Assembly: GCF_014334325.1 (NCBI RefSeq)
Contig: NZ_JACSET010000007.1
Span: forward strand, 62,001 to 126,000
Direction: 5' to 3'
DNA length: 64,000 nucleotides
Origin: Treponema sp. Marseille-Q4130
Lineage (GTDB): Bacteria; Spirochaetota; Spirochaetia; Treponematales; Treponemataceae
Below, in pieces: positions 2,652 to 39,562 of the stretch (position 1 is the first letter of the stretch; every line of letters begins with the position of its first letter). A program made the position numbers and the translations under genes. The notes under the pieces were generated by a model. It was not told where the DNA came from and ran no database searches. It worked only from the letters and a program-made list of their open reading frames with translations.

Positions 2652-5009
2652 TTAATCTTTTTTCTGCGTCTGCAGAAAGTCGCCGAACGTATACGCGCCG
2701 TCGTTTTCATCGGGCTTTGCGATATACTGCGAAATGGCCGCCCGCTCCTGCGCCTTTTTGAATTCGCGCACGGAAAAAGCGATCTTTTCTTTTTCGACGT
2801 TGACGTCGACGACGTACACATTGATTTTATCGCCGACTTTATAATTTTTTACCGCCTCTTCAAAAGGTACGTTGCGGTCTTCGCTCAAATTCGTTTTATT
2901 GACAAGACCTTCGATGCCTTCCGGCGCTTTGACGAAAATGCCGAATTCCGTGATCGACGTGATCTCGCCTTCGAGCGTCGAACCGGGTTTATGCGCGTCG
3001 GCAAAGAGCTTCCACGGATTGTCGGTAAGCTGCTTGATACCGAGCCGGATACGGTGGCTTTCCGCATCGTTTTCGATGACGACCGCTTCCACTTCCTGAT
3101 CCTGTTCGAGTTCGCTTCCGGGATGCTTGACTTTTTTCGTCCACGAAATATCGTCGCCGTGCAAAAATCCGTCGATGCCGTCTTCAAGTTCGATAAAGGC
3201 GCCCGCATTCGTGATCTTTACGACTTTGCCCTTTATGCGCGTGCCGACCGGATATTTTTCGCCGATCGTATCCCACGGATTCGCCGTGACCTGCTTTAAG
3301 CCCAGCGATACGCGGCCGGCTTGAATATCGTAGCCGAGGATCATGCATTCGACTTCGTCTCCGACTTTTACCATGTCGGACGGCTTGTTGACTTTTTTCG
3401 TCCACGAAAATTCGCTTATGTGCACGAGACCTTCGATGCCCTCTTCAAGTTCGATAAAGGCACCGAAATCGGTAAGCTTCGTCACTTTGCCCTTTACGAC
3501 ATCGTTGACGTGATAGGTATCTTCAAAGTGCATCCACGGATCTTCGGTAAAGTGCTTGAGCGAAAGGTTGATGCGCTTTTCGGCTTCGTCCATGCGGATC
3601 ACTTTGAGCTCGATCTCCTGCCCTTTTTTGACAAAATCTTTCGGGCGGGCGACATGCCCCCAGCTCATATCGTTTATATGAAGCAGACCGTCGAATCCGC
3701 CCAAGTCGATGAAAGCGCCGAAGCTTGTAAAGCTCTTTACGGTACCCTTTACCGTGTCGCCGATCTTTACGTTCGAAAAAAATTCATCGCGGGCTTTATC
3801 GATCTGCTCTTCGAGATATTTTCTGCGGTTGACGACAACGTTCGCTTTGTTGTCGGAGTACAGCCGTTCGATATACATTTTGCTTTCGGTACCGATGAGC
3901 GATTCGGGTTTTTCGACCTTTTGGCTGTCGGACTGGCTGATCGGCAAAAACGCGTGTATGCCGCCGCCCAAATCGACTTCGAAGCCGCCTTTCACGACCT
4001 TCGATACAGTGCCGTCTATAGGCGTTTTATCTTTGAACGCTTGGGTAATATCCTTCCACAAGCGCTTTTCATCGGCTTGCCGTTTGGAAATCTCCGGACC
4101 GTTTTTGCCGAATTTATTGACGAGTTTAACCGTAACCGTATCCCCGACTTCCGGCACCTTTGAGCCGAACTCCGATTTGGGGATTCTGCCTTCCGATTTG
4201 CAGTTTACATCGACAAATACGGTATCGTCGGTAACCGCGACGACCGTCCCGTCGACGAGCTGTCCGTTTTCCGGCGTGCTCAAACTGTTCAGAGATTCTT
4301 CTAATTGTGTCTGGAACTTATCCTTGGAGTCCTGGTTTTGTTCCTTTTCCACTTCCTGTGTTTCCATCTTTGACCCTTTTTCGTGAATTTGATTTAATAT
4401 TATCTCACAAACTTTCTCTATCGTCAAGGTGGATGTATCGATATATACGGCGTCGGGAGCAATGACGAGTGCGCCTTCTTTTTTGTTTTTATCGATTTCG
4501 TCGCGCTTCTTTATCGCTTCTTTGATCTCTTCGAGCGTCATGCCGCTCACGCCCTGTTTGAATCTCCGCTCGGCCTGCACGTCAAGCGACGCGTCAAGAT
4601 AGAATTTACAGTCGGCATCGGGAAATACGACGGTCGTCATATCGCGTCCTTCCGAAACGATGTCGAGCGATTTTGTTAATTCGCGAAGGCGAGCGTTGAC
4701 AAAACGGCGTACTTCGGGAAACGCGGACACGCCTGCCGCGTGAGCGCTCACTTCGTCCGCGTGCAGCAAGGATTCGACGTCATCGCCGTTTAGAATCAAA
4801 TGCGAATCGACGTAATCGAGTTTTTGTTTTTTGCAAAAATCGACGACAGCCCCTTCGTCATTCAAATCGATGCCGTTTTTTAAAAGCGCGAGCGTGAGCG
4901 CGCGGTAAAAGCTTCCGCTGTTTAAAAACGTAATGCCGAGCTTTTTCGCAATAAGAGATGCAATCGTGCTTTTACCGGTACCCGCCGGTCCGTCTATCGC
5001 AATAACCAT
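2652..5009 (-). CDS. cmk-rpsA: Fused cytidylate kinase / 30S ribosomal protein S1
   Basis: A 785-residue protein. Residues 1 to about 212 are CMP kinase (P-loop GPAGTGKS at 6-13; SEGRDMTTVVFPDA), which phosphorylates CMP/dCMP. Residues about 240-760 carry six S1 RNA-binding domains, seen as repeated G-x-V-x-x-x-T-x-F-G-A-F-I units. Fusion of the two is, from memory, typical of treponemes. The ATG at 5009 is preceded by GGGAGGATAT. An internal ATG at 4367 (METQEVEKE, residue 215) sits exactly at the junction and has its own AAGGG site six bases upstream, so free S1 (571 residues) might also be made. The S1 half would serve mRNA loading on the ribosome. Confidence 0.95.
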   Translation of the reverse strand: MVIAIDGPAGTGKSTIASLIAKKLGITFLNSGSFYRALTLALLKNGIDLNDEGAVVDFCKKQKLDYVDSHLILNGDDVESLLHADEVSAHAAGVSAFPEVRRFVNARLRELTKSLDIVSEGRDMTTVVFPDADCKFYLDASLDVQAERRFKQGVSGMTLEEIKEAIKKRDEIDKNKKEGALVIAPDAVYIDTSTLTIEKVCEIILNQIHEKGSKMETQEVEKEQNQDSKDKFQTQLEESLNSLSTPENGQLVDGTVVAVTDDTVFVDVNCKSEGRIPKSEFGSKVPEVGDTVTVKLVNKFGKNGPEISKRQADEKRLWKDITQAFKDKTPIDGTVSKVVKGGFEVDLGGGIHAFLPISQSDSQKVEKPESLIGTESKMYIERLYSDNKANVVVNRRKYLEEQIDKARDEFFSNVKIGDTVKGTVKSFTSFGAFIDLGGFDGLLHINDMSWGHVARPKDFVKKGQEIELKVIRMDEAEKRINLSLKHFTEDPWMHFEDTYHVNDVVKGKVTKLTDFGAFIELEEGIEGLVHISEFSWTKKVNKPSDMVKVGDEVECMILGYDIQAGRVSLGLKQVTANPWDTIGEKYPVGTRIKGKVVKITNAGAFIELEDGIDGFLHGDDISWTKKVKHPGSELEQDQEVEAVVIENDAESHRIRLGIKQLTDNPWKLFADAHKPGSTLEGEITSITEFGIFVKAPEGIEGLVNKTNLSEDRNVPFEEAVKNYKVGDKINVYVVDVNVEKEKIAFSVREFKKAQERAAISQYIAKPDENDGAYTFGDFLQTQKKD

Positions 5010-26498: not shown

Positions 26499-26587
26499 GC
26501 GCGCCGCAAATGCGTTTTACAACGATCCGACAGGGCGTGCATACGCGCTAGGGCAGGCTGCATTCGTCATACTCGGACTTCGATTCC

Positions 26588-26616
26588 TTTAAAAATTTTA
26601 AAACATATGTTACAAT
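26588..26616 (+). promoter_or_regulatory. Promoter of the ON-phase lipoprotein
   Basis: TTTAAA (26588-26593), 17 bases, TACAAT (26611-26616). The sequence around the -10 (ATATGTTACAATAATAA) matches the promoter of the second poly-G lipoprotein (ATATGTTATAATAATAA) at all but one position. Confidence 0.6.
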
Positions 26617-26710
26617 AATAATTATGAATATTTTATTTTAAAAATTCCGATCAAAAAAGCGGCACTTTTGATATGAATATTCAAAATTATTTTTATCACG
26701 GAGGTATATG

Positions 26711-28075
26711 ATGGACAAAGCAAAACCTATGCATTCGTATAGGGGGGGGGTATTCGGTAAAGCTCTCTTTTTAAAATTAACAATTTTATTTTTCGGTATC
26801 GTGCTGACTGCCGTATCGATGGCAAGCTGCGCGAACGGATCCTCGGACACCGGCGGAACGACGATCCCGACGATACATCCCGACGAACAATGGGTCAATG
26901 AGGCCATAAGTAAAGCGGGTGCGGCTCCTACATTCATCGTAGGCACGGGAAAAACGATTACCCTTTCAGGAGACGGCTTAACGTGGACGTCAAATAACAC
27001 CGCCATCATAAACGTCGCAGGCTCACCTTCCGGAGCATACGATGTTACGCCGCCTGAAGGGAAAGCCGATGTAACCTTAACGGCAAAGGCGAAAAAGGGT
27101 GCATTTTCAAAAGAAAGAAAGTTTACCGTCGTCGTACACAAAGACTCATCGACGGTGACAGTCGCCGATCTTATAAAAAGCATCAACCTGCCTTCGGAAA
27201 CGGAAACCGACATAAACCTTCCTGCAACTATTCCGGGAGTTTCCGGCGCAAGCATAACGTGGACTTCGGATAAACCTTCCGTAATAGCCGACGACGGCAA
27301 AATAGATCCTGAAAAGCGGGATTTGCGCGACATACCCGTAAAACTTACGGCGACGCTTACTTATAACGGTACGGCGACGAAAGACTTTACCGTCGCCTTA
27401 AAGCGTCTTACGGAAATATCGGAAACTCGTACCAAGGACGGCAATACCACTACTACAAAGTGGATTTTTACCGATACCGAAATATGGTATACAAGAACAC
27501 AGACTTCAAGTTCAGAGACGAATACGTACGGCAGAAAATTTATATACCAAGACATCGATACGACTACAAAAAAACTTAAAATGCTGCGGCAAACACATGA
27601 TATGCTGAACGGAAAGTCGTACGAAATCGGCAGCTCCGAACACAAAGCTTTAGCGATAAACTCTGGAATGTCTGAAGCCGAGTATGCGGAATACGTGAAT
27701 AGGAATAAAACACCCAGACTCTGTACCTACAGCATTCGGTATCACACGACCGAAAAAACATACGTTTTTTATATAAAGGAGACGTACGACAGTTCGAAAA
27801 AATGGTTTGAACAAAGCGGCAGCTATCGGTACGACACATCGCCTTATAAATATATACGGATTGAAAAGGAAATGGGATCGGACTATCGTTTTTCGTATGA
27901 TGATAAATCCTACGTCGGAACAATAAACGCGGAAGGCACCGTCTTTACCGGCAAGGAAAAAGATAACAACGCAGACACGATTACTGTAGACATCACCGAC
28001 AATCTTGACGGCACCGTTTCGATAAGAGTCGCAGGTAGTACATATACGCTCTACTTTTACGGCAGGTATCTATAA
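26711..28075 (+). CDS. Phase-variable Ig-like-domain lipoprotein, tract in ON frame
   Basis: A 454-residue lipoprotein. GGAGG lies six bases before the ATG at 26711 (another ATG abuts it at 26708). Codons 11-14 (RGGV) are written across nine Gs, then GKALFLKL and a hydrophobic core lead to the lipobox SMASC. Residues about 60-230 contain two bacterial Ig-like modules with the TWTSNN and TWTSDKPS strands. The C-terminal half is Tyr/Thr-rich and beta-like, with no family recognised. Likely displayed on the periplasmic or outer surface. Its 5' end is homologous to the gene at 38.4 kb. Confidence 0.85.
   Translation: MDKAKPMHSYRGGVFGKALFLKLTILFFGIVLTAVSMASCANGSSDTGGTTIPTIHPDEQWVNEAISKAGAAPTFIVGTGKTITLSGDGLTWTSNNTAIINVAGSPSGAYDVTPPEGKADVTLTAKAKKGAFSKERKFTVVVHKDSSTVTVADLIKSINLPSETETDINLPATIPGVSGASITWTSDKPSVIADDGKIDPEKRDLRDIPVKLTATLTYNGTATKDFTVALKRLTEISETRTKDGNTTTTKWIFTDTEIWYTRTQTSSSETNTYGRKFIYQDIDTTTKKLKMLRQTHDMLNGKSYEIGSSEHKALAINSGMSEAEYAEYVNRNKTPRLCTYSIRYHTTEKTYVFYIKETYDSSKKWFEQSGSYRYDTSPYKYIRIEKEMGSDYRFSYDDKSYVGTINAEGTVFTGKEKDNNADTITVDITDNLDGTVSIRVAGSTYTLYFYGRYL
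26742..26750 (+). repeat. Poly-G tract (nine G) in coding sequence
   Basis: Nine consecutive Gs near codon 12 of the lipoprotein gene. With nine the signal peptide is read in frame; gain or loss of one G shifts translation to an early stop. Confidence 0.9.
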
Positions 28076-28096
28076 CAGCAAAGTTTTTCCGCTCGT

Positions 28097-28120
28097 GCCG
28101 CTGCTGCAAACGGCAGCGGC
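28097..28120. terminator. Strong hairpin after the lipoprotein gene, no T-run
   Basis: GCCGCTGC (28097-28104) pairs with GCAGCGGC (28113-28120) around an eight-base loop, 22 bases past the stop. No T-run follows on either strand, so it may only stabilise the mRNA end or assist Rho-type termination. Confidence 0.4.
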
Positions 28121-28234
28121 AAAAATCGCCGGTCGACGGATAAGCAGACTGCAAACACGGACGGTCGTATCTGTAAACGGCGACGCGTCATGCAGATTGC
28201 ACGCATCCCGCCGCAGCAATCCCCGCCGCGCGCC

Positions 28235-30265
28235 CTACACGCGTTTTGCCGATTTTTTTGCGGCGGGCTTCGACGCGTCTTGGATCGCTTTTGCATGCGC
28301 TTCGGCTTTGACGATCTCTTCGAATTCTTTGCCGTCCATCGTTTCTTTTTCGAGCAAGTACTTCGCGATGTATTCGAGCAACTCGCGGTGCTTTTTCAAA
28401 AGAGCGACGACGGATTTGTAGCGCTCGGCCATAATGCGGGCTATCTCTTCGTCGATATATTTTTGCGTTTCTTCCGAATACTCGCGCACGAGCTGCGGTT
28501 CGGCAGCCCCGTATCCCTGTCCCGATTTTCCGAGCGTAACGTTTTTAAATCGGTCGCTCATACCGTAAGCAGTGATCATTTTGCGGATCGTATCGGTTGC
28601 CCGTTGGATATCGTTTGCGGCTCCGGTCGAAATCTCGTCGAAGATAACCTGTTCGGCAGCTCGTCCGCCGAGTAGCACGTCGACTTCGTTGATCAAATCG
28701 CGTTTCGTCTCCAGTGTCTTTTCTTCTTCTTCGCGATACTGCGTAAAGCCGCCGATACCGTGAGAGCGCGGAACGACGGTGATCTTGTTGACCGGCGGAT
28801 AGTCGGGCGTAAAAGCGCCGACGAGCGCGTGTCCCGTTTCGTGGAACGCGACGATGCGCCGCTCTTTTTCGTTTTCCTTGCGCGTCTTTTTTTTGAGACC
28901 GATGCTCACTTTGTCGATCGCGTCGTTAAAATCGGACATCGTCACTTTTGCGTGCCCGTTGCGTACGGCGAGGAGAGCCGCTTCGTTTACGACGTTTGCG
29001 AGGTCGGCCCCCGCGAAACCTATCGTGCCGTGCGCAAGAGATTCGAAATCGACGTCGGAATCGAGTTTGACGTTTTTCGCGTGGATGCGCAAAATCTCTT
29101 CCCTGCCCTTGACGTCGGGACGTTCGACGGGCACTTGGCGGTCAAAGCGGCCGGGGCGCAAAAGCGCAGGATCGAGTATGTCGGGGCGGTTCGTCGCCGC
29201 TAAAATGATCAATCCTTTTTCGTTATCGAAGCCGTCCATTTCGACGAGGAGCTGGTTGAGCGTCTGTTCGCGTTCGTCGTTGCCGCCGAGGTTGTTCATG
29301 CGGCTTTTGCCGATCGCATCGAGTTCGTCGATAAAGATGATGCACGGCGCTTTTTCCCGCGCTTGGCGGAAGAGGTCGCGCACGCGGCTCGCACCGACGC
29401 CGACGAACATTTCTACGAAGTCCGAACCGGAAATGCGGAAAAAGGGCACGCCCGCTTCTCCCGCGACAGCGCGCGCAAGGAGGGTTTTACCCGTACCCGG
29501 AGGTCCGACGAGCAGCACGCCCTTCGGGATCTTACCGCCGATGTCGGTATATTTTTTCGGCTGCTTTAAAAAATCGACGACTTCGATAAGCTCGTCTTTC
29601 GCTTCGTCCACGCCCGCAACGTCGGAAAAGCGCGTTTTCACTTTCCCCTCTTCGACGGCTTTCGCGCGCGACTGCCCCGCGCCGAAAATGCTTCCCATAC
29701 CGCCGCCCATGCCGCTTCCCATCTTTCGAAGCACTAAAAAATACATGATAAAAATAAAAACGATCGGTATCAAATTAACAAGGATCGGAAGCAGGTAATT
29801 GTTTTGCCGGAGCACGAATTTATAATCGACGCCCTTTTCGTTCATCAGTTCGATGAGTCCTTCGCTTAGGCCCAGTACGCCGAGCGTTTTGTATTCCTGC
29901 CGGCTGCGCGTTTGAACGGGAAAAAGCATATAGCCTTTCGCGCTCTGCTCCGAAGAAACTGCGCGCTCGGGACCGTAGCCCGTAAAATAGGTTTCGCCGA
30001 GTTCGACCGAAACGATCTTTCCGTCTTCGATGAGGCGGCGGAATTCGGAAAAATCCACGAGGTTGTCGGGCTTGGACATGACGAACATATTGACCAGCGC
30101 AAGCACCGCAAGCACGAGGAGCATAAGCGCCCACAGCGGAAACCGCGAGCGGTTATTGTCATCGTCTTTTTTCTTTTTATCGTTGTTGTCCGGCCCTGCA
30201 AATTTAAAAAAATTGTACGGATCGTCTTTATTGTCGTCTTTTTTATCTTTGATTTCATCGCTCAT
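28235..30265 (-). CDS. ftsH: ATP-dependent zinc metalloprotease FtsH
   Basis: A 676-residue membrane AAA+ protease. After a charged Lys/Asp-rich N-terminus, two membrane helices (about residues 42-60 and 155-180) frame the periplasmic part. Then come the AAA domain (Walker [20 protein letters not shown], the second region of homology) and the M41 zinc motif HETGH. It degrades misfolded membrane and regulatory proteins. GAGG precedes the ATG at 30265; a start nine codons upstream lacks a site. It ends in a Lys/Ala-rich tail. Confidence 0.97.
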
Positions 30266-30360
30266 CAAAAACCTCACTGGAATACGTTTCACTCATTTAA
30301 ATATACGCAATATCGCCGCCTTTGTCGACACAAAAACGCTTGCGCCGAATGAATTTCGTA

Positions 30361-30387
30361 TAAAGTTCCGTTTTCAAATACCGATAC
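30361..30387 (+). promoter_or_regulatory. Sigma-28 (FliA) flagellar promoter for fliS
   Basis: TAAAGTTC (30361-30368), exactly 11 bases, ACCGATAC (30380-30387). This matches the consensus TAAAGTTT-N11-GCCGATAA at 13 of 16 positions. It points to the fliS gene at 30451, a late flagellar gene. Confidence 0.7.
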
Positions 30388-30450
30388 TCATATACGGATG
30401 ACTGTTATCCCGACGAAATATCCCGCCGCATGGGTACACGGAGGTTGAAC

Positions 30451-30891
30451 ATGGGCTACAATCAAGCGTATAATGCATATAAAAATACGAATATCCGCAC
30501 GGCAAGTCAGGGGCATCTCATCGTGTTGCTCTATGAGGGAGCGGTACGCCAGCTCACGGCAGCAGCCGATATGTTCGATTCGGCAAACGCCATAAAAGCG
30601 CGCGATATCGAAAAATTCAATAACTGTCTGCAAAAAGCGCAGGCGATCATCACGGAGCTGCAAGTATCGCTCGATATGGACAGGGGCGGCGAAATCGCAA
30701 AAAATCTCATGTCGCTGTACATATTTTTCAATAACGAACTCATGTCGGCCAACATCAACCGCGACAAAAAAAAGGTCGATTTTGTGCTGTCGATGCTGAC
30801 GGAACTTTCCGACGCGTGGCGGCAGGCGGCAAGCAGCACGGCAAATGCACCGGCGGCGACGGTCGCAAACTCGCTGAATATAGAAGGCTGA
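30451..30891 (+). CDS. fliS: Flagellar export chaperone FliS
   Basis: A 146-residue helical chaperone that binds flagellin C-termini in the cytoplasm and prevents early polymerisation. The family start GYNQAYNAYKNTNIRTASQGHLIVLLYEGAVRQL is plain. GGAGG stands six bases before the ATG at 30451; an in-frame ATG at 30430 is upstream of that site. It is followed by a FlgN-like chaperone gene. Confidence 0.95.
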   Translation: MGYNQAYNAYKNTNIRTASQGHLIVLLYEGAVRQLTAAADMFDSANAIKARDIEKFNNCLQKAQAIITELQVSLDMDRGGEIAKNLMSLYIFFNNELMSANINRDKKKVDFVLSMLTELSDAWRQAASSTANAPAATVANSLNIEG

Positions 30892-30905
30892 ATCGAGGAA
30901 AACTC

Positions 30906-31385
30906 ATGCATAAACTTTCACAAAACGAAATAGACGAACGGGTCGCCGTACTCAAACGCTTTAAAACGCTACTCGTACAGCAGCGCGATAAATTCCGCGA
31001 ATACCTCTTAGTGCTCGAAAAACAGCAAACGTCGATCACGGAAGAAAACACCGACGCCCTCATCGCGCATACGGAGCTCGAACAGCAAGTCGTTTCGAAT
31101 ATCGCCGGTCTGCAAAAAGTGATCGTACCGATGTCGGAAATGTATTCGTCGATCAGGAGTTCCGCCGAGGCCGACGAAACCCGCGCCCTCGAATCGATTC
31201 AAAAAGACCTTGCACACTTACAGTCCCAAGTCCTCGCCCAAAACGAAAAGAACCGCAGCCTGCTCCGAGTCCACATCGCAAACATTCAAACTCAGATGGA
31301 GCGCATTAAAAATCCGTACCGCGGAAGCAGGAGCGTGTATGCGCAAAAGCAAAGCGTCGGAAGTTTCGTCGAAGTGCAGGCGTAA
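30906..31385 (+). CDS. FlgN-family flagellar chaperone
   Basis: A 159-residue, almost wholly helical protein. It has the FlgN pattern: LVQQRDKFREYLLVLEKQQTSITEENTDALIAHTELEQQVVSNIAGLQK, then a second long helix and a basic tail (NPYRGSRSVYAQKQ). FlgN escorts hook-associated proteins FlgK/FlgL. GAGGA precedes the ATG at 30906, 14 bases after fliS, so the two are co-transcribed. The family assignment rests on pattern and neighbour. Confidence 0.8.
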   Translation: MHKLSQNEIDERVAVLKRFKTLLVQQRDKFREYLLVLEKQQTSITEENTDALIAHTELEQQVVSNIAGLQKVIVPMSEMYSSIRSSAEADETRALESIQKDLAHLQSQVLAQNEKNRSLLRVHIANIQTQMERIKNPYRGSRSVYAQKQSVGSFVEVQA

Positions 31386-31391
31386 GAGGGC

Positions 31392-31910
31392 ATGATCGCA
31401 CTCATCGCGGCATACGCAAAAAACCGCGCGATCGGAAAAGACGGAAAGCTCCCGTGGAAATTAACAAAGGAACTGCATCATTTCCGCGATGTGACTTCGG
31501 GCAATGTCGTCGTCATGGGACGAAAGACGTTCGAATCGCTCGGAAAACCGCTTAAAGGCAGAACGACGATCGTCCTTTCGAAAAGTAAAATCATTTCCGA
31601 AAGACAGATGCCCGACGCAAAGCTCTACGGAGCGAGAAGCATAGACGAAGCTCTTTTTCTTTCGGAAACACTTGCAACGAAAAGCGATCCTCCCCCCGAC
31701 ATCTTTTTTGCCGGCGGCGAAGCGGTCTACGCCGAAGCGCTGCCGTTTTGCAGCGCACTTTACATAACGGAGATCGACGCATACGTCGACGGCGACGCCT
31801 TTTTTCCGGACTTCGACGAAGCGCTCTTCGACAAAAAAATTATCAAAAAGATAAGCGACGATACCCTGCCCTACACATACATTCTGTACACGAAAAAAGC
31901 GCGCGATTGA
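31392..31910 (+). CDS. folA: Dihydrofolate reductase
   Basis: A 172-residue DHFR that reduces dihydrofolate with NADPH for thymidylate, purine and Met synthesis. Seen: MIALIAAYAKNRAIGKDGKLPW (active-site Trp and loop), VVMGRKTFESLGKPLKGRTTIVLS and FFAGGEAVYAEALPF. It is six bases downstream of the FlgN-like gene and so seems to ride on the flagellar unit. Confidence 0.95.
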   Translation: MIALIAAYAKNRAIGKDGKLPWKLTKELHHFRDVTSGNVVVMGRKTFESLGKPLKGRTTIVLSKSKIISERQMPDAKLYGARSIDEALFLSETLATKSDPPPDIFFAGGEAVYAEALPFCSALYITEIDAYVDGDAFFPDFDEALFDKKIIKKISDDTLPYTYILYTKKARD

Positions 31911-31966
31911 CCGTCCGAACAAACAGGCGCAGCGGATTCCGCGCTCTCCTGTAGGCATACACACAC

Positions 31967-31999
31967 AAAAAAAAGCGCAAAAAAAAAGCGCAAAAAAAA
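31967..31999 (+). repeat. A-tract direct repeat upstream of response-regulator promoter
   Basis: A8-GCGC-A9-GCGC-A8, a 13-base unit repeated, ending four bases before the -35 box at 32003. It could act as an UP element or bent DNA, and its length may vary by slippage. Confidence 0.75.
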
Positions 32000-32002
32000 T
32001 GC

Positions 32003-32029
32003 TTGTCAATTTATATATTTGCGTATAAA
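32003..32029 (+). promoter_or_regulatory. Promoter of the response-regulator/kinase operon
   Basis: TTGTCA (32003-32008), 15 bases, TATAAA (32024-32029). The ATG at 32041 follows after 11 bases, with no ribosome site. A second -10-like TATAAT (32034-32039) abuts the ATG but is too close unless translation begins further in. Confidence 0.5.
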
Positions 32030-32040
32030 ATGATATAATT

Positions 32041-33288
32041 ATGAAGAATGTTCTGCTGATAGATGCATCCCCCCTTTTTAGAGAGTTTTTGAAGGACAAA
32101 CTTTCTGCAGAAAAAGTTTCGGTTACGGTGACGCAGGGAAAACGCGACGCCTTTATCAAAATGATTTCGATCCTGCCCGATCTCATCATCTATGAAATAC
32201 AGGACGATTTTTCCGAATTGTTGCGCTTTTTGGAAAAAAAACGCGCGGATCCGAATGCCGTCCGCATTCCGATGATCGTCTCAGGTCCCGTCGCCGACCG
32301 TACTAAACTCTCGCAGTTTGCGCAGTTCGGCGTCACCAAATATTTTACCAAACCGATAAAATTCGATATTTTTTTCGAAGCGGTCGGACAGATCCTATCT
32401 CTCGCGTTTTCCATGGATACGACCCAGTGCGTACTCGACATCCACCGAAACGGCGATATCATCTTCATAGAAATCGCCGACGGGTTGAATCGGGAAAAGC
32501 TCGCGCTGCTCAAATATAAGCTGACGGAGATGATCGACGCGGGACAACTGGATGCTCCGAAGATAATCCTGATGCTGACGAATCTCGATCTTTCTTTCGT
32601 CGACGGATCGAATATCGAACTGCTGCTGGACAATGTGCTTGCCGACCCGAAAGTGCAGCCCAAAAACGTGAAAGTGCTTTCGCTCAATTCTTTTATCCGC
32701 GAGCTGATTGCGGGGCATCCCCAATACGACGGCATCGAAGTCGTAACCGAACTCTCTCACGTCCTCAATTCGCTCATCGACAGCAGCGCGGGTTCAAGCG
32801 TTTCCGAATTGGTCGAGGAAAAACTTTTGACGCCGATGCGCGAGCCGTCGCAGGATTCCATCGATACGCGTTTTTATTCCGACTTGGGTGTCGAACAGGA
32901 CGACAGCGAAACCGTCGGAAACGTTTTGCGCATCGCGCTCGTGGACGACGACGCTGTCGTTTTGAAGCTTTTGGAAAGCGCGTTCAGAGCCGTAAGCGCG
33001 ACCTGCGATCTGTATTCCAGCGGAGCGGAGTTTTTAACGGGCATCAACAAACACCGCTATGATCTCGCCGTCGTCGACATACTGATGCCCGGTATTTCGG
33101 GTTTCGATATTTTGGCGCGATTGGGCAACACCGCACACGGCGTTCCGATCATCATCTATTCGCAGACGACAAAGCGCGAAGACGTCATACGCGCGCTCAG
33201 CCTCGGCGCAAAGCACTATCTAGTAAAACCGCAAAAACCCGAAGTCATCGTACAAAAGGCGATAGAGCTGCTCCATGGAAAAATCTAA
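32041..33288 (+). CDS. Double-receiver response regulator with central STAS-like domain
   Basis: A 415-residue protein in three parts. Receiver 1 (1-120) has D8 and K104, but the phospho-acceptor Asp is replaced by Glu (E52 in LIIYEIQDD), so it may be locked or non-phosphorylatable. The middle (about 125-240) looks like a STAS/anti-sigma-antagonist-type fold (VLDIHRNGDIIFIEIADGLN...LTNLDLSFVDGSNIELLL). Receiver 2 (about 297-412) is complete (LVDDDAVV, VVDILMPG, YLVKPQ). No DNA-binding domain is present, so output is probably by protein contact. It overlaps the kinase gene by 14 bases. Confidence 0.8.
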   Translation: MKNVLLIDASPLFREFLKDKLSAEKVSVTVTQGKRDAFIKMISILPDLIIYEIQDDFSELLRFLEKKRADPNAVRIPMIVSGPVADRTKLSQFAQFGVTKYFTKPIKFDIFFEAVGQILSLAFSMDTTQCVLDIHRNGDIIFIEIADGLNREKLALLKYKLTEMIDAGQLDAPKIILMLTNLDLSFVDGSNIELLLDNVLADPKVQPKNVKVLSLNSFIRELIAGHPQYDGIEVVTELSHVLNSLIDSSAGSSVSELVEEKLLTPMREPSQDSIDTRFYSDLGVEQDDSETVGNVLRIALVDDDAVVLKLLESAFRAVSATCDLYSSGAEFLTGINKHRYDLAVVDILMPGISGFDILARLGNTAHGVPIIIYSQTTKREDVIRALSLGAKHYLVKPQKPEVIVQKAIELLHGKI

Positions 33289-35254
33289 TATCGATCCCGA
33301 CCAGCGATTAACGTTTCTTGCGAACACCGTACACGAAATCCGTACGCCGGTGCAGACGATCATCGGCACGCTCGAACTGCTTTCCGATACGAAGCTCAAC
33401 AACGAACAGCAGGAATACGTGCGCCAAATTCAATTCAGCACGAATGTTCTGCTCTCGCTCGTCAACGACATACTCGATTTTACGAAAATCAAATCGCGGC
33501 AGATCACCCTCGAATCGATTCCGTATGATGTCGTCGCTCTCACCGAACAGGTCGTCGACCTCGTCAGTATGGAAGCGTTCGGCAAAGGCATAGAGCTCGT
33601 CGTCGATTCCGACTACAAACTGCCGCAGCTTATCGTCGGAGATCCGACGCGCATTCAGCAAGTACTCCTCAATATTATTAAAAATGCCGTCAAGTTCACG
33701 CAATCGGGCTATATTCACGTAGCGCTTAAGTGCAAAGATAAAAAAATGCTGCTCTTTGAAATAGCGGATACCGGCATCGGCATTCCGAAAGAAAAACAGG
33801 GGCAGCTTTTTACCGATTATTATCAGGCGGAAACCTCGACGACGCGCAAGTACGGCGGAACGGGTTTGGGACTGGCGATATGCAAAGGACTCGTCACGGC
33901 GATGAACGGCGACATAGGCGTACGCACGAATCCCGACGGCGGCTCCGTTTTTTGGTTTACCGTTCCCTTTGCCGCGGCACAAAATCTGCCGGTTCCGAAC
34001 ACGATAGTCGCCGCCCCTCCGAATACGCGCATCCTAATCGTCGACGACAGCCTCCTCGCGGTAAACAGCATGCGCCAAAAATTCAATTCGTTCGGTTTGC
34101 ACAATATCGCCCATGCAAAAGACGCGGCGGAAGCGCTGCTGAAAATGAAAAACGCAAACCACCTCGGAAAACCCTTTTCACTCGTTTTTATCGATATGAG
34201 TTTGCCGAAAGTGGACGGCTGGCACCTCGCATGGGAAATCAAAGAGTGCAATTTTACCGACACAAAATTATATCTGCTCGTTCCCGAAGGTCAGATGGGT
34301 GCCGAAGCGAAGATGAAGCTCATTAATCTGTTCAACGGCTATCTCTACAAACCGGTGAAACGCCATCTCGTGCAGTCACTGCTCAACGACATTTACGACG
34401 TACCGACCGACCTCGAAACCGTCGACGCAAAACAGACGAAGGCGAGCGAAGCGGCCGTCCCTGAAAATGGAACAAACATCACAGAGGGCATCACGGTGCT
34501 CGTCGCTGAAGATCATCCGCTCAACAGAAAACTGATCATAACGTTCTTAACAAAATTGGGTGCGCCGGTCATCGAAGCGGAAAACGGAAAGCAAGCCGTT
34601 GAAGCCGTCGAAAAAAACCGCGCGATCAATATGATCTTTATGGACATTCAAATGCCGATCATGGACGGCATCGAAGCGTCGAAAAAAATCAGAGCAAGCG
34701 GTTATACCGGCATCATCGTCGCGTGTACGGCAAACAACGATGAAGACGATTTCGATCTGTACCGCAAAATCGGCATGAACGACATCCTTGTCAAACCTTT
34801 TAAAAGGGACGATATAAAAACACTTATCGAAAAATGGCACACGGTTATCGAACTGCCCGTCGCGCCGAAAATCACGATGCTCGACAGCATGATGGCGCCG
34901 ACGAATACCGCGTGGAATCAAAAAGACTTCGAAGACACGATCGGCGGCGATAGGACGCTCGGCAGGGAACTCATTGCCGAATACCGCAAACAGCTTGCCG
35001 CCCTTTTGCACGACGCGGAAAAAGCCGTCGCCGAAAAAAACTTCGACGAACTGCGCCGCATCGGTCACACAATCAAAGGCAGCTCCGCCGCGATTTCCGC
35101 GAACGCGCTCGCAAACAGGGGCGCGCGCATCGACGAAGATGCGAAAAGGCACGACATCGAAAACGTGCAAAACGATTTTTCGGCGTTGAAAGACGAATTG
35201 ACGGTTTTCGAAATCAATTCGGATATATGGCAGCACGAGCGCACCGAAAACTAA
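33275..35254 (+). CDS. Cytoplasmic hybrid histidine kinase with two receivers and Hpt
   Basis: A 659-residue kinase without membrane helices or an evident sensor domain. Order: HisKA with H20 (LANTVHEIRTPVQT), HATPase (NIIKNAVKFTQSG, DTGIGIP, GGTGLGLAICKGL), receiver 1 from about 250 (LIVDDS, VFIDMSLP), receiver 2 from about 407 (VAEDHP, IFMDIQMPIMDG, LVKPF) and an Hpt domain (RRIGHTIKGSSAA, His near 596). A full phosphorelay on one chain, with the adjacent regulator as likely partner. With no sensor of its own it may depend on a partner protein. Confidence 0.9.
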   Translation: MEKSNIDPDQRLTFLANTVHEIRTPVQTIIGTLELLSDTKLNNEQQEYVRQIQFSTNVLLSLVNDILDFTKIKSRQITLESIPYDVVALTEQVVDLVSMEAFGKGIELVVDSDYKLPQLIVGDPTRIQQVLLNIIKNAVKFTQSGYIHVALKCKDKKMLLFEIADTGIGIPKEKQGQLFTDYYQAETSTTRKYGGTGLGLAICKGLVTAMNGDIGVRTNPDGGSVFWFTVPFAAAQNLPVPNTIVAAPPNTRILIVDDSLLAVNSMRQKFNSFGLHNIAHAKDAAEALLKMKNANHLGKPFSLVFIDMSLPKVDGWHLAWEIKECNFTDTKLYLLVPEGQMGAEAKMKLINLFNGYLYKPVKRHLVQSLLNDIYDVPTDLETVDAKQTKASEAAVPENGTNITEGITVLVAEDHPLNRKLIITFLTKLGAPVIEAENGKQAVEAVEKNRAINMIFMDIQMPIMDGIEASKKIRASGYTGIIVACTANNDEDDFDLYRKIGMNDILVKPFKRDDIKTLIEKWHTVIELPVAPKITMLDSMMAPTNTAWNQKDFEDTIGGDRTLGRELIAEYRKQLAALLHDAEKAVAEKNFDELRRIGHTIKGSSAAISANALANRGARIDEDAKRHDIENVQNDFSALKDELTVFEINSDIWQHERTEN

Positions 35255-35276
35255 CGCAGGATACGGCAGGAAAGCG

Positions 35277-36110
35277 ATGAAAACAAATTACCACATGCAC
35301 ACGACATTTTGCGACGGGAGCGATACGGTCGAAGCGATGGCTCTGGCTGCATTCGAAAAGCGATTCGACATAATCGGATTTTCAAGCCACAGCATGTACC
35401 CCTTTGCCGGCGACTGCCACATAGCTCCGCGAGAATTTAATAATTACGTAAACGCTGTGCGGAACGCGGCAAAAGCATACGAGGGACGCATGCGGATTTT
35501 GCTCGGCTTCGAAGTCGAATATATGCCCGGGCTTTCGATTCCGCGCATGAGCGATTATGCCGCTTTTCAGCCCGACTATCTCATCGGCTCGGTGCACTAT
35601 CTCATAACGGAAAACGGAACCTTTTCCGTCGACGATAAAACCGAAAACGTCAAAGAGGGACTCGAACGTTTTTTCAACGGCAACGCAAAAGAAGCGGTGT
35701 GTATGTATTTTTCGCTGCAGCGCGAAATGCTGCAAAAGGGCGATTTTCTCATCTGGGGACATCCCGACGTTATCAGAAAAAGAAACGGCATCCTGCATTT
35801 TTTCGACGAAAACGAAAGCTGGTACCGAAGCGAACTCGTCGCGACGGCGAATTCGGCAAAGCATGCCGGCGTCATCGCCGAAATCAACACGGGCGGCATT
35901 GCCCGCGGCGCGATCGACGACGTCTATCCGTCCGCAGATTTTCTTTCGCTGCTCCATACCTCGGGCGTTCCCGTCATGATCAACTCCGATGCGCACAAAG
36001 CGGCAGACATCGACTGCGCGTTCGACAGAGCCGAAGCAGCGGCGAAAAAAGCGGGCTACACCGAAGTTTCGTTTTTGGATGAAGGCGTTATAAAGCACAG
36101 AAAGATCTAG
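35277..36110 (+). CDS. PHP-domain histidinol-phosphatase (HisK type)
   Basis: A 277-residue PHP phosphoesterase. The metal ligands are visible in YHMHTTFCDGSDT, GFSSHSMYPF, GFEVEYMPG, GSVHYL, WGHPD and NSDAHK. Relatives (HisJ/HisK) hydrolyse histidinol phosphate, but no other his gene is in the window, so another phosphate ester may be the substrate. AGGAAAG precedes the ATG. It follows the kinase by 22 bases and may share its transcript. Confidence 0.85.
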   Translation: MKTNYHMHTTFCDGSDTVEAMALAAFEKRFDIIGFSSHSMYPFAGDCHIAPREFNNYVNAVRNAAKAYEGRMRILLGFEVEYMPGLSIPRMSDYAAFQPDYLIGSVHYLITENGTFSVDDKTENVKEGLERFFNGNAKEAVCMYFSLQREMLQKGDFLIWGHPDVIRKRNGILHFFDENESWYRSELVATANSAKHAGVIAEINTGGIARGAIDDVYPSADFLSLLHTSGVPVMINSDAHKAADIDCAFDRAEAAAKKAGYTEVSFLDEGVIKHRKI

Positions 36111-36168
36111 GCTGAATAAATAAGTTGCAATGACTTAATTTCAAACATGGCATAATAGCTGTCCAAAT

Positions 36169-36203
36169 TAATTGGTAATTGGTAATGTGTAATTTGTAAT
36201 TGA
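36169..36203. repeat. Five heptamer tandem repeats
   Basis: Five units of the form TAATNNN: TAATTGG, TAATTGG, TAATGTG, TAATTTG, TAATTGA. It lies in the 264-base gap between the PHP gene and the OFF-phase lipoprotein; nothing else but the terminator is seen in that gap. Confidence 0.8.
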
Positions 36204-36305
36204 GTTACCCATTAGCCATTGAAATTACCGTAAGCCGCATTTCGGCGCAGCCTTGCAGCGCGGGCGGTTCGTCCGATATCCCCGACGACTTTTTCAGCCT
36301 TCCGT

Positions 36306-36357
36306 AAAAAAAGGCCAAAACCCGTGTATACGGGACACGGATGTCCTATATACACGG
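36306..36357 (-). terminator. Terminator of the OFF-phase lipoprotein gene
   Basis: Minus strand: CCGTGTATA and TATACACGG (36357-36349 with 36330-36322) enclose an 18-base loop, followed by GTTTTGGCC and seven T. Confidence 0.7.
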
Positions 36358-36374
36358 CGGCGCTTTTGCAGCGT

Positions 36375-38418
36375 TTACAATTCAAAGTCCGGAGAGTAAC
36401 ACCATACGTATGAAAATACTTTTCCGCTATTGTAGTAGTCTATATCATTGTGTATGTCGTTCCCTATTTTCCATGACTGTCCGTTTACCGTGACGGTAAT
36501 GTCTGTTGCTGTTGTCGGAAGCCGGTACGTTTTACTGTCGGGCAGCTCGATTCTCATCTGTGTGTCTATGTAGTATTTTTTCCCAGATTCGAAAGTGCCG
36601 CTTGCATTTTCCCACCCGGTGCCGTTCCACACCCGCCATATGTAGGGAACGAGATACAACAGCTTTGCGTGACTGTCTGCACTGTAGGTATATGTTATAG
36701 AATTGGGTATCGGGTTTCCTACTACAGGAGGATCCATCGTTGCCGTAAGCGCGGTTATTGGCGTGCGGTTATCACTCCAGCGCGCATACAGCGTCATGTG
36801 ATCCGTTACCGGTTCAGAAAAGTCCCATGTGCCCCAAGCCTCCGTACCGTAGCTGGCATAATATTCGGAAGTACACCATGTGGAAAACGTCCAGTACGAA
36901 TTGACGGCTGCGGGAGCGGCAGGAGGGGAAATCAGCTGTCCCGAATCGGCTTCAATCGCTAGGGGGACGGCACGTCCGCGCCAGCCGACGACAAAGGTAA
37001 CGAGCTTTTTATCGACTATGCCTTCCGTACAAAAGACGTCGATAAACTTTTCTGCAGGAGGCGAAGCCTCATCGTATACCCTAATCTGCGCAATGCTTGC
37101 CGTTTGCCCCGCCTGCGCTGCTTCAGGAGTGCCTGAAATTACGCCGTCTTCTCCAAGCGAAAGACCTGCGGGAAGCGCTCCCGAGGTAATGCTAAAATGA
37201 TACGGACGCGTACCGCCGCTTACCACTGAAGCGACATCAACTTCGGTTATCGGCTTTCCGACATAGGATTTGGGAACGAATACGCTGCTTTGGCTGAGCG
37301 TAAGAGGATTGCTGCTTGAGACGTGGTGTTCTTTTGAAGCAACGGATGCATATGAATAACCGGCATAGTTGTTTGGCGTCGAAACGCTCCACTCTTCGTA
37401 AGAATTGCCGTCATCGAAGCTTACAAATACTTTTATATCGGGAGAAAGCATATACCGTGCGTTGTCGGGGCTGTCTATGCGCACTTGCGTTTGTATTTGG
37501 TAGATTCCTTCCGTACAAGGCGAGCCTGAAACGTTGCTCCATTCCAGTCCGTCCTTTTTTTGCCAGCCGTATGTAGAATTATTCGCAATAAGTTTTGCAG
37601 GCTCTCCCACTACGCCGGAGGGCTCATAGTCCGTATATGTATAAGAAATGCCGCTGGGTATTGTTTGCCCCAATACAAGCGGTGCTGCTTTTGCGCGCAC
37701 TTTGGTAATGGCAATTCGTTCTCTTACAAAGCTCACTTTCACGTTTACCGCTTTGGTAACGGCGAGGTCATAAGTGGCTGCTATGTTGCTTATAACAACA
37801 TCGTCTACCTTCCATTCTTTTAGTTCATAGCCCGTATCCGGTACAGCGGTAAAGGTTACGGTTTTGCCTTTTTCGACATTTATAGGGCTCACATCCGTTT
37901 CCGTAACGCCGTCCGCCTTTGCTTTAAGCGTACCGTGCCCGCCTTCCACGCTGAAATTTACGGTATACTTGGGCAGCGGTGTACTGTCGCTTTCAAAGCT
38001 CACCTTCACGTTTACCGCTTTGGTAACGGTAAATGAATAAGAATTATTCGTGCCGTTTACGGTGTTGCCGTCAAGCGTCCAGCCCTTTACCTGGTAGCCC
38101 GTCCCCGGCACCGCGGTAAAAGTTACTGTTTTGCCTTGTTCGACGCTTATGGGACTTGTTGCCGTTTCCGTTATACCGTCCGCCTTTGCTTTCAGCGTGC
38201 CGTTTGTGCCGTCCACGCTGAAATTTACCGCGTGCTTGGGTGTGGGCGTAGGCGGAGTGCCGCCGCCCGAATCGCCTCCGTTGGAACAGCTTGTAAAAAC
38301 GAGCGCTGCGGCAAACAGCAAAGCGCCGGCCGCTGCAATCGGTATTTTTTTTAAAAGGACTTTACCGAGTACCCCCCCCCCTATACAAACGTACAGGGTT
38401 CATCTTTCTTTCGTTCAT
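36375..38418 (-). CDS. Phase-variable InlB-repeat lipoprotein, tract in OFF frame
   Basis: GAGGAGG is followed by ATG at 38418 (MNERKMNPVRLYRGG). With the ten Gs present, the frame hits TAA seven codons on from the tract. With nine Gs it would read on as RGGVLGKVLLKK and a hydrophobic core to the lipobox FTSC, giving 680 residues. The open part (from about 38321) carries two divergent InlB-type repeats (HAVNFSVDGTNGTLKAKADG; YTVNFSVEGGHGTLKAKADG), a putative Ig module (PAGLSLGEDGVISGTPE) and a third B-repeat (FSTWCTSEYYASYG). Likely a surface lipoprotein, silent in the sequenced cell line. Confidence 0.85.
38372..38381 (-). repeat. Poly-G tract (ten G on minus strand) in coding sequence
   Basis: Ten Gs at the same place in the gene as the nine-G tract at 26742. 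One unit too many for the signal peptide to be read in frame. Confidence 0.9.
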
Positions 38419-38459
38419 CTAAACCTCCTCGTCAACGGGATAAACCGCTGTTTGTTATT

Positions 38460-38488
38460 ATTATAACATATTTCATCGCTTTTAACAA
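38460..38488 (-). promoter_or_regulatory. Promoter of the OFF-phase lipoprotein
   Basis: Minus strand: TTGTTA (38488-38483), 17 bases, TATAAT (38465-38460). The -10 region resembles that of the ON-phase gene. Confidence 0.7.
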
Positions 38489-38574
38489 CTTTTATTAATT
38501 ATTAATTATTGTTTTCAAGGTGATCGTAGAAGATCGGAGATACGACAAATTGTTGCCGCGTGAGACGGCTCGAC

Positions 38575-38772
38575 TTACAGCTGTTCGACTTCCGCTTCGG
38601 TGAGACCGGTCGCTTGTGCGATAATACTGATGGAAACTCCAAGTCGTTTGAAATTTGCCGCGTCTTGCAGTGCTTTTTGATATGAGCCTTCTTTCAGTGC
38701 GATTTCTCTTTCTTCTTCCCGCTATACGGCGATATCCACGTCATAGTCATATTCGGCAATTAACATATTCAT
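38575..38772 (-). pseudogene. 3' remnant of Rpn/PD-(D/E)XK transposase-nuclease family
   Basis: Sixty-six codons from an ATG with GAGGAG upstream: MNMLIAEYDYDVDIAV, an in-frame TAG at 38724-38722, then REEEREIALKEGSYQKALQDAA and NFKRLGVSISIIAQATGLTEAEVEQL before TAA. The AEYDYDVDIAV element and the closing LGVSISIIAQATGL are, from memory, typical of the C-terminus of Rpn-family (transposase_31-like) proteins. The catalytic domain is missing. The rest of the 515-base gap (38419-38933) holds only the promoter and the palindromic element. Confidence 0.7.
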
Positions 38773-38779
38773 TCTCCTC

Positions 38780-38933: not shown

Positions 38934-39290
38934 TCAGCGGCGCTTGCGCTCTTCTTCCGATGCACAGGTCACACACATAAGTGCATACGGAAGCGCCTTT
39001 AAACGTTGCTGCGGAATGTCTTTACCGCACTTGACGCACTTCCCATATTTTCCCTGACGGATGCGGTCAAGCGCATTGTCCACAAGTTGCAGGCGCGCCG
39101 CATCCTGAGAGCCGAGCGAATCGAGCAGCGTACGGTCGATCGCATCGGAGGCAACATCTATAACGTCGCCTGCGGCAACGGTCTTTACCAATTTTTTCAT
39201 ATCGTCGCTCTGCTCCGCAAGAGAGGCAAGGATAGTCTGCCGACGTGAGAGCAAATCTTTTTTCATACTTTCGATAAATTTTTTATCCAT
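38934..39290 (-). CDS. DksA/TraR-family zinc-finger protein
   Basis: A 118-residue protein. An N-terminal coiled coil (residues 1-75) leads to the TraR/DksA four-Cys finger (GKCVKCGKDI...LMCVTCASEEER). Family members reach into the RNA polymerase secondary channel and adjust transcription with ppGpp. The coiled-coil tip lacks the usual DxxDxA, having DVIDVASDAIDR, which may serve. The ATG at 39290 gives the normal length; GGAG stands ten bases before it. Confidence 0.85.
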   Translation of the reverse strand: MDKKFIESMKKDLLSRRQTILASLAEQSDDMKKLVKTVAAGDVIDVASDAIDRTLLDSLGSQDAARLQLVDNALDRIRQGKYGKCVKCGKDIPQQRLKALPYALMCVTCASEEERKRR

Positions 39291-39430
39291 AACCGATGAA
39301 CTCCGTGCAATGAACCTCGCCCGTGTTGACAAGCGAGGGGATTTTATACATACTGAACAGTATACGACCAAATCGGAATAAAAACAAGGTTTAAATTGAA
39401 CATCTGAAATAGCTCCGTTCAATTTAACTT

Positions 39431-39452
39431 CGAGTTTTCTTTCGAAAACTCG
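39431..39452. other. Perfect hairpin upstream of infA
   Basis: CGAGTTTTC and GAAAACTCG form a nine-base stem with a four-base loop (TTTC centre). It lies 110 bases before the infA start and 140 after the DksA-like start on the other strand. It may be an mRNA leader hairpin. Confidence 0.5.
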
Positions 39453-39562
39453 CCCATATACGTGTGCACGATCGCGCACGAATGCAGCATTTTTGAAAAT
39501 TGATATTTTCTGCAATGCCGCATTTTAAAGATTTTTTTATTCGATTACGCAGCGGAGGAACT

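What the first reader, a model, noticed from the sequence alone, without database searches (positions are those of the whole stretch)
26742..38418. Two phase-variable lipoprotein genes, one ON and one OFF
Seen: both genes have a similar promoter (ATATGTTAYAATAATAA, 17-base spacers), a GGAGG site, and a short coding lead that crosses a G-run within codons for RGGV(F/L)GK before the signal peptide. The plus-strand gene has nine Gs and reads through; the minus-strand gene has ten and stops after seven codons. Taking out one G gives a complete lipoprotein signal (RGGVLGKVLLKK...FTSC) joined to the open body. Known: G-runs of 8-12 change length by slipped-strand pairing. Inferred: an on/off surface-display system, with the two proteins differing beyond the shared leader.
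Basis: partly seen in the sequence, partly recalled or inferred. Interest (0 to 1): 0.88.

Follow-up and report, generated by a model that had tools for sequence, protein, structure and literature searches.

The report
Poly-G on/off switches on spirochaete lipoproteins
A relative of the oral spirochaete Treponema socranskii has several lipoprotein genes that start with the same short segment holding a run of G bases, so that small changes in the run would switch each gene on or off; the kind of switch is known from other bacteria, this gene family seems not to have been described.

Summary
The only two G/C runs of 7 or more in the 64-kb window (G9 at 26742-26750; G10, minus strand, at 38372-38381) both lie in the signal-peptide lead of a lipoprotein-like gene. 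Gene A is in frame (455 aa). Gene B's lead stops after 18 codons; its 664-codon body is open in another frame.

The leader is a real gene family: 12 copies in three related genomes (own 4, G007 6, T. socranskii ATCC 35536 2), none comparable in the other 271 family genomes searched. Two of 12 copies read through end to end. Both resolved orthologous leader pairs differ in tract length. The out-of-frame G007 bodies stay open, with dN/dS 0.39-0.59 and mosaic similarity. The leader fronts unrelated bodies; A's site is empty in both relatives, and B's site in G007 keeps leader and flanks but has another body.

Best reading: translational phase variation by slipped-strand changes of poly-G in the signal peptide, Opa-like, with body exchange. 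No switching was observed. Two copies with interrupted tracts are out of frame yet keep open bodies, which simple switching does not explain.

The parts
26562..28201 (+). segment holding gene A with promoter; absent at this site in both relatives
   Evidence: G021 joins window 26561 to 28202; G007 has 73 bases between 26506 and 28221
26588..26616 (+). promoter-like site of gene A (TTTAAA-17-TACAAT)
   Evidence: motif ATATGTTAYAATA shared by 8 of 12 family members
26708..28075 (+). gene A, 455 aa, in frame; signal peptide about codons 1-40, Cys41; aBig_2 domain
26742..26750 (+). G9 tract of gene A
38460..38488 (-). promoter-like site of gene B (TTGTTA-17-TATAAT)
38362..38418 (-). lead of gene B, 18 codons then stop
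38372..38381 (-). G10 tract of gene B
36375..38369 (-). body of gene B, open for 664 codons in a frame other than the lead's; two InlB B-repeats (Flg_new_2) and He_PIG

Best explanation
Genes A and B are members of a small paralogous family of lipoprotein genes in Treponema socranskii and its closest relatives. Each has a G-rich tract, usually an unbroken poly-G run, inside the N-terminal part of its signal peptide. Slipped-strand mispairing at replication would change the run length, so that the ribosome either reads on into signal peptide and body (as in A) or meets an early stop (as in B). Each locus would switch on its own, giving cells with different lipoprotein sets. The promoter and leader have been duplicated and the bodies behind them exchanged by recombination. 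Shown: anatomy, family, frames, tract-length differences between orthologues, open and constrained bodies, a slot with the same leader and another body. Inferred: slippage, on/off expression, surface display, benefit to the cell.
For: Tracts far above chance and the only G/C runs of 7 or more in the window. Twelve leaders in three genomes at E 1.4e-17 or better, next best match 1.8e-9; five of the 12 were not rows of the profile. Lead length before the tract is 34, 37 or 40 bases in 10 of 12, that is, whole-codon differences. Copies A and C read through, B does not, D reads across the tract but has a later stop. Both resolved orthologue pairs differ in tract length: B G10 against L077 G8, D G9 against L084 G8. 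Six out-of-frame G007 bodies are open over 650-660 codons, dN/dS 0.39-0.59 in 21 of 21 pairs of seven G007 bodies. Poly-G tracts in T. pallidum vary in length: 76% of 17 targets (PMC7864442, passages).
Against: No reads or second isolate were available, so no length change was seen within a strain. L076 and L082 have interrupted tracts, are out of frame and keep open bodies. Only 2 of 12 copies read through end to end, none of 6 in G007 and none of 2 in G021. D has a stop outside the tract. Constraint measured between paralogues may predate the loss of frame. The residue three before the lipid Cys is Met in A and Phe in B, so the lipobox is not canonical.
Confidence: 0.8

Rival explanations
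1. Out-of-frame copies such as B are silent rather than switched: decaying genes, or an archive that donates body segments to expressed copies by gene conversion.
For: Two out-of-frame copies have interrupted tracts. G007 bodies are mosaic: L081 matches L078 at 0.98 in one block of 40 codons and L076 at 0.99 in another. D has a stop outside the tract. In B's slot the body has been replaced in G007.
Against: Nine or more open bodies without stops are not expected for decay: in a neutral simulation on two bodies, 10% change gave 6.5 and 6.8 stops on average and no stop-free run in 300, 5% gave stop-free runs in 5% and 3%, 2% in 24%, so only recent decay would fit. Ten of 12 tracts are unbroken runs of 8-11 G.
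Confidence: 0.12
2. The out-of-frame state is partly bypassed: RNA polymerase or the ribosome slips on the G-run, so that some B protein is always made.
For: Polymerase slippage at poly(A) tracts rescues frames in Buchnera (PMC2831843, passage). Bodies of out-of-frame copies stay open.
Against: By arithmetic the out-of-frame copies fall in both other frames, so no single programmed shift serves them; the interrupted tracts of L076 and L082 offer little to slip on.
Confidence: 0.06
3. The tract lengths are sequencing or assembly errors and the genes are constantly in frame.
For: Runs of 8-16 G are error-prone; four contigs of G021 end at G-runs and one of G000 begins 22 bases from one. No reads were seen.
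Against: Out-of-frame copies occur in three separate assemblies, two of them with short, interrupted tracts.
Confidence: 0.05

Closest known systems
Neisserial opa genes
   Same: repeat in the leader-peptide coding region sets the frame; several loci per genome; bodies reassorted by recombination (PMC3960869, passages)
   Different: CTCTT pentamers instead of G; outer-membrane barrels of one family instead of lipoproteins with several kinds of body; no sequence relation is claimed or was tested
Poly-G phase variation of Treponema pallidum (tpr genes, TP0126, tprL)
   Same: poly-G tracts of about 8-12 in genes for surface candidates of the same genus name; length varies within isolates (PMC7864442, passages)
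   Different: there the studied tracts lie in promoters and change transcription; here the tract is in the coding region of the signal peptide
5' homopolymer switches such as Listeria inlA or Mycoplasma vaa
   Same: homopolymer near the gene start, frame shift gives a short peptide (PMC2831843, passages)
   Different: poly(A), single genes, other phyla
BspA-type LRR and InlB B-repeat lipoproteins
   Same: LRR_5 in C, L076, L077, L080; Flg_new_2 in B, C, L076, L077, L080, L082
   Different: A has aBig_2 only; the domains say nothing about the switch

Membership tests
Simple-sequence contingency locus, translational | long homopolymer or short tandem repeat within the coding region near the start | tested here: met
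   G9 and G10, 34 and 37 bases after the ATG
Simple-sequence contingency locus, translational | repeat number decides whether the downstream body is in frame | tested here: met
   A and C in frame, B and others not, bodies open; L076 and L082 have interrupted tracts
Simple-sequence contingency locus, translational | tract length differs between related loci or strains | tested here: met
   two of two resolved orthologue pairs differ, between species
Simple-sequence contingency locus, translational | reversible length change within a clone, with change of expression | not testable with these tools
   no reads, no cultures
Neisserial opa | CTCTT coding repeats and Opa barrel protein | tested here: not met
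   tract is G; bodies match aBig_2, Flg_new_2, He_PIG, LRR
T. pallidum promoter poly-G type | tract in the promoter | tested here: not met
   tracts of A and B lie after the ATG
Bacterial lipoprotein | n-region with basic residues, hydrophobic core, lipobox Cys | tested here: inconclusive
   pattern visible in the aligned leaders, Cys invariant in 7 of 7 rows; -3 residue Met (A) or Phe (B); that spirochaete lipoboxes are relaxed is recalled; no predictor was run

The most novel reading that the evidence does not exclude
The promoter plus poly-G signal peptide is a portable switch: chromosomal slots keep the switch while different lipoprotein bodies are exchanged behind it, and copies with interrupted tracts form a silent archive that feeds mosaic bodies. 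On/off switching and antigen reassortment would then be coupled in an oral spirochaete.
Probability: 0.3. Interest if true: 0.72.

Novelty: new member of a known kind. Interest (0 to 1): 0.52.

Why it matters
If confirmed, Treponema socranskii and its relatives randomise part of their lipoprotein set by contingency loci in the coding region, a different layout from the promoter tracts studied in T. pallidum. Antigens or adhesins measured in one culture would then not describe the population. In the paper library only one paper holds both 'socranskii' and 'phase variation', a Fusobacterium paper seen as a listing; the searches listed no title or abstract start that describes such a switch in this species. 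The library lacks most subscription journals, so absence from print is not proved.

Tried and rejected
A scan of named genomes with A's protein found no relative. A scan with the B/L082 body alignment gave 8 loci: T. socranskii 2, T. parvum 1, T. vincentii 3, two distant MAGs. A degenerate DNA pattern searched in 200 genus genomes matched 29 places in 24 genomes; 8 of the 29 (G000 4, G007 3, G021 1) have the leader and a lipoprotein body, the other 21 look like chance. A single-sequence structure model of A was poor (mean pLDDT 46.1) and no fold search was made. NCBIfam gave only matches below its cut-offs for A, B, C and L076 (none for A).

A fixed programmed frameshift was set aside because the out-of-frame copies fall in both other frames. 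The 5' element TGCAAAAGTTTTTATAGGAGG was considered as part of the switch and dropped: it precedes many unrelated genes and is not directly before A or B.

The low share of readable copies (2 of 12) was considered as a sign of selection for the off state and not claimed; with one frame in three expected, it is not a clear departure.

Full report
WHAT IS THERE. Gene A (plus strand) starts at 26708, crosses G9 at 26742-26750 and runs in frame for 455 codons. Gene B (minus strand) starts at 38418, crosses G10 at 38381-38372 and stops after 18 codons; a body of 664 codons is open in another frame. Both have promoter-like hexamers with 17-base spacers and a GGAGG site. Since the scans find about as many sites as shuffles do, at least around B (4 against 3.9; 7 against 3.2 around A), the promoter case rests on the shared motif: ATATGTTAYAATA lies within 140 bases upstream of 8 of 12 family members.

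CHANCE. The window has two G/C runs of 7 or more, and they are these tracts. A first-order model expects 0.019 G and 0.036 C runs of 9 or more. The tract codons are not the usual choice: in 15 long ORFs that I picked, GGG is 52 of 559 Gly codons and AGG 27 of 438 Arg codons.

ORGANISM. The window lies in an unnamed 2.79-Mb genome of 18 contigs. Contig G021:C28 has the length (86,723 bases) of NZ_AVQI01000028.1 of T. socranskii subsp. socranskii ATCC 35536, returned for the same gene, so I take G021 to be that strain. The window stretch 24000-40500 matches G021 at 89-96% in its four best-scoring matches. G007 is a third relative in one 2.8-Mb contig, unnamed.

THE LEADER FAMILY. A profile of seven leaders was searched in 196 genus genomes. 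Matches at E 1.4e-17 or better number 4 in the own genome, 6 in G007 and 2 in G021; the next is 1.8e-9. At E 0.01, 151 of 196 genomes have a match; these look like ordinary lipoprotein signal peptides, but I did not inspect them one by one. In 274 family genomes, matches at E 1e-7 occur in 6; besides the three, the other three genomes have one each at 3.7e-8 to 9.9e-8. Seven of the 12 leaders were rows of the profile; D, L075, L076, L077 and L082 were not.

STATE OF THE 12 COPIES. Own genome: A, G9, in frame; B, G10, out; C (C2:14623), G9, in frame, 523 aa; D (C1:48074), G9, in frame across the tract but with a stop five codons behind it. G007: L075 G11, L077 G8, L079 G8, L080 G8, L081 G8, and L076 with an interrupted tract, six of six out. 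G021: L084 G8 and L082 with an interrupted tract, two of two out. So 2 of 12 are readable end to end. The lead before the tract is 34, 37 or 40 bases long in 10 copies and 36 in the orthologues D and L084; whole-codon differences among the ten suggest that the lead is translated.

BODIES. The leader fronts different architectures: aBig_2 (A), InlB B-repeats with He_PIG (B, L082), InlB B-repeats with BspA-type LRR (C, L076, L077, L080) and a short LRR body (L084) (L075, L079 and L081 were not scanned but are 74-78% identical to L076 or each other). The six out-of-frame G007 bodies are open over 650-660 codons. Among seven G007 bodies, these six and the tract-free L078, dN/dS is 0.39-0.59 in 21 of 21 pairs; B against L082 gives dN 0.219, dS 0.461. 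In a neutral simulation on two bodies (300 runs each), 10% change gave 6.5 and 6.8 stops and no stop-free run, 5% gave stop-free runs in 5% and 3%, 2% in 24%. So old decay is unlikely and recent loss is not excluded. Similarity is mosaic: in blocks of 40 codons L081 is closest to L078 (0.98) in one and to L076 (0.99) in another. L078 carries a related body behind an ordinary signal peptide without a tract.

SLOTS. At A's site ATCC 35536 joins window 26561 to 28202 with nothing between, and G007 has 73 bases between 26506 and 28221. A with its promoter was gained here or lost twice. At B's site G007 keeps the PHP-domain gene on one side and the gene at window 38934-39453 on the other (DksA-like by recall, not searched), and a promoter-leader stretch alignable to window 38293-38774 at 70-74%, but has a BspA-LRR body (L077) and further genes, one of them (in L109) an Rpn-family recombination-promoting nuclease by NCBIfam. 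In G021 the contig that matches one side ends near this site, so it is unresolved.

TRACT LENGTH BETWEEN ORTHOLOGUES. B (G10) and L077 (G8) share a slot; D (G9) and L084 (G8) share about 2 kb at 91% and 1 kb at 87%. Both pairs differ. A tract before an ATPase-like gene is G9, G8 and G9 in the three genomes.

POLY-G IN THE GENOME. Runs of 9 or more G or C: 13 in the own genome, 4 of them in this family. Runs of 8 or more: 19, 15 and 12 in G000, G007 and G021, of which 4, 5 and 1 in the family. So most long runs lie elsewhere, some at other plausible switches (see noticed items).

MECHANISM. Replication slippage in a G-run inside the N-region of a signal peptide would decide whether the ribosome reaches the body. 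Length change of poly-G within isolates and in 76% of 17 targets is reported for T. pallidum (PMC7864442, passages). The nearest working model is Opa of Neisseria: leader-peptide repeats, several loci, reassorted bodies (PMC3960869, passages). I call it alike in working, not related in descent.

WHAT DOES NOT FIT. L076 and L082 have interrupted tracts, are out of frame and keep open bodies. They may be newly broken, may serve as donors for gene conversion, or may be read in a way I did not find. No reads were available, so switching was not seen. Surface exposure rests on domain types and lipoprotein-like signals only; no signal-peptide predictor was at hand.

VERDICT. The kind of switch is known; the family appears undescribed as far as the listed searches reach.

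Noticed in passing
L015 (G000:C11:148654) and L144 (G007:C1:2682870): G11 and G13 tracts lie between a -35-like and a -10-like hexamer (spacers 15 and 17) before ORFs with signal-peptide-like starts; looks like the promoter type of poly-G switch known from T. pallidum.
   Followed up: partly
L013 (G000:C10:1-1782) and L155 (G007, near C1:448688): Relatives of A's body (35% and 34% identity) with ordinary signal peptides stand behind a C16 or C11 tract; in G007 the tract directly follows a -10-like box, and a terminator-like hairpin was seen by eye between tract and gene.
   Followed up: partly
L019 (G000:C17:93053): G11 tract just after the lipid Cys of another lipoprotein-like ORF (207 aa), in frame.
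   Followed up: no
L018 (G000:C15:189944): G13 tract directly before a hexapeptide-transferase-like open frame.
   Followed up: no
L128 (T. vincentii OMZ 806), position 4121: G15 in a lipoprotein with InlB-type repeat; the frame from the start ends shortly after the tract.
   Followed up: no
G000, G007, G021, e.g. L093-L120: The 21-base element TGCAAAAGTTTTTATAGGAGG (up to 3 mismatches) occurs 40, 40 and 22 times (reversed control 1 each), often right before unrelated ORFs; a common 5' leader of unknown origin.
   Followed up: partly
window 39386-39531: A stretch of about 145 bases matches more than 20 places in G007 and G021 at about 75-88%; a dispersed repeat of unknown nature.
   Followed up: no
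G007:C1:626478-627290 (L109): Rpn-family recombination-promoting nuclease gene in the slot of gene B, absent there in the window.
   Followed up: partly
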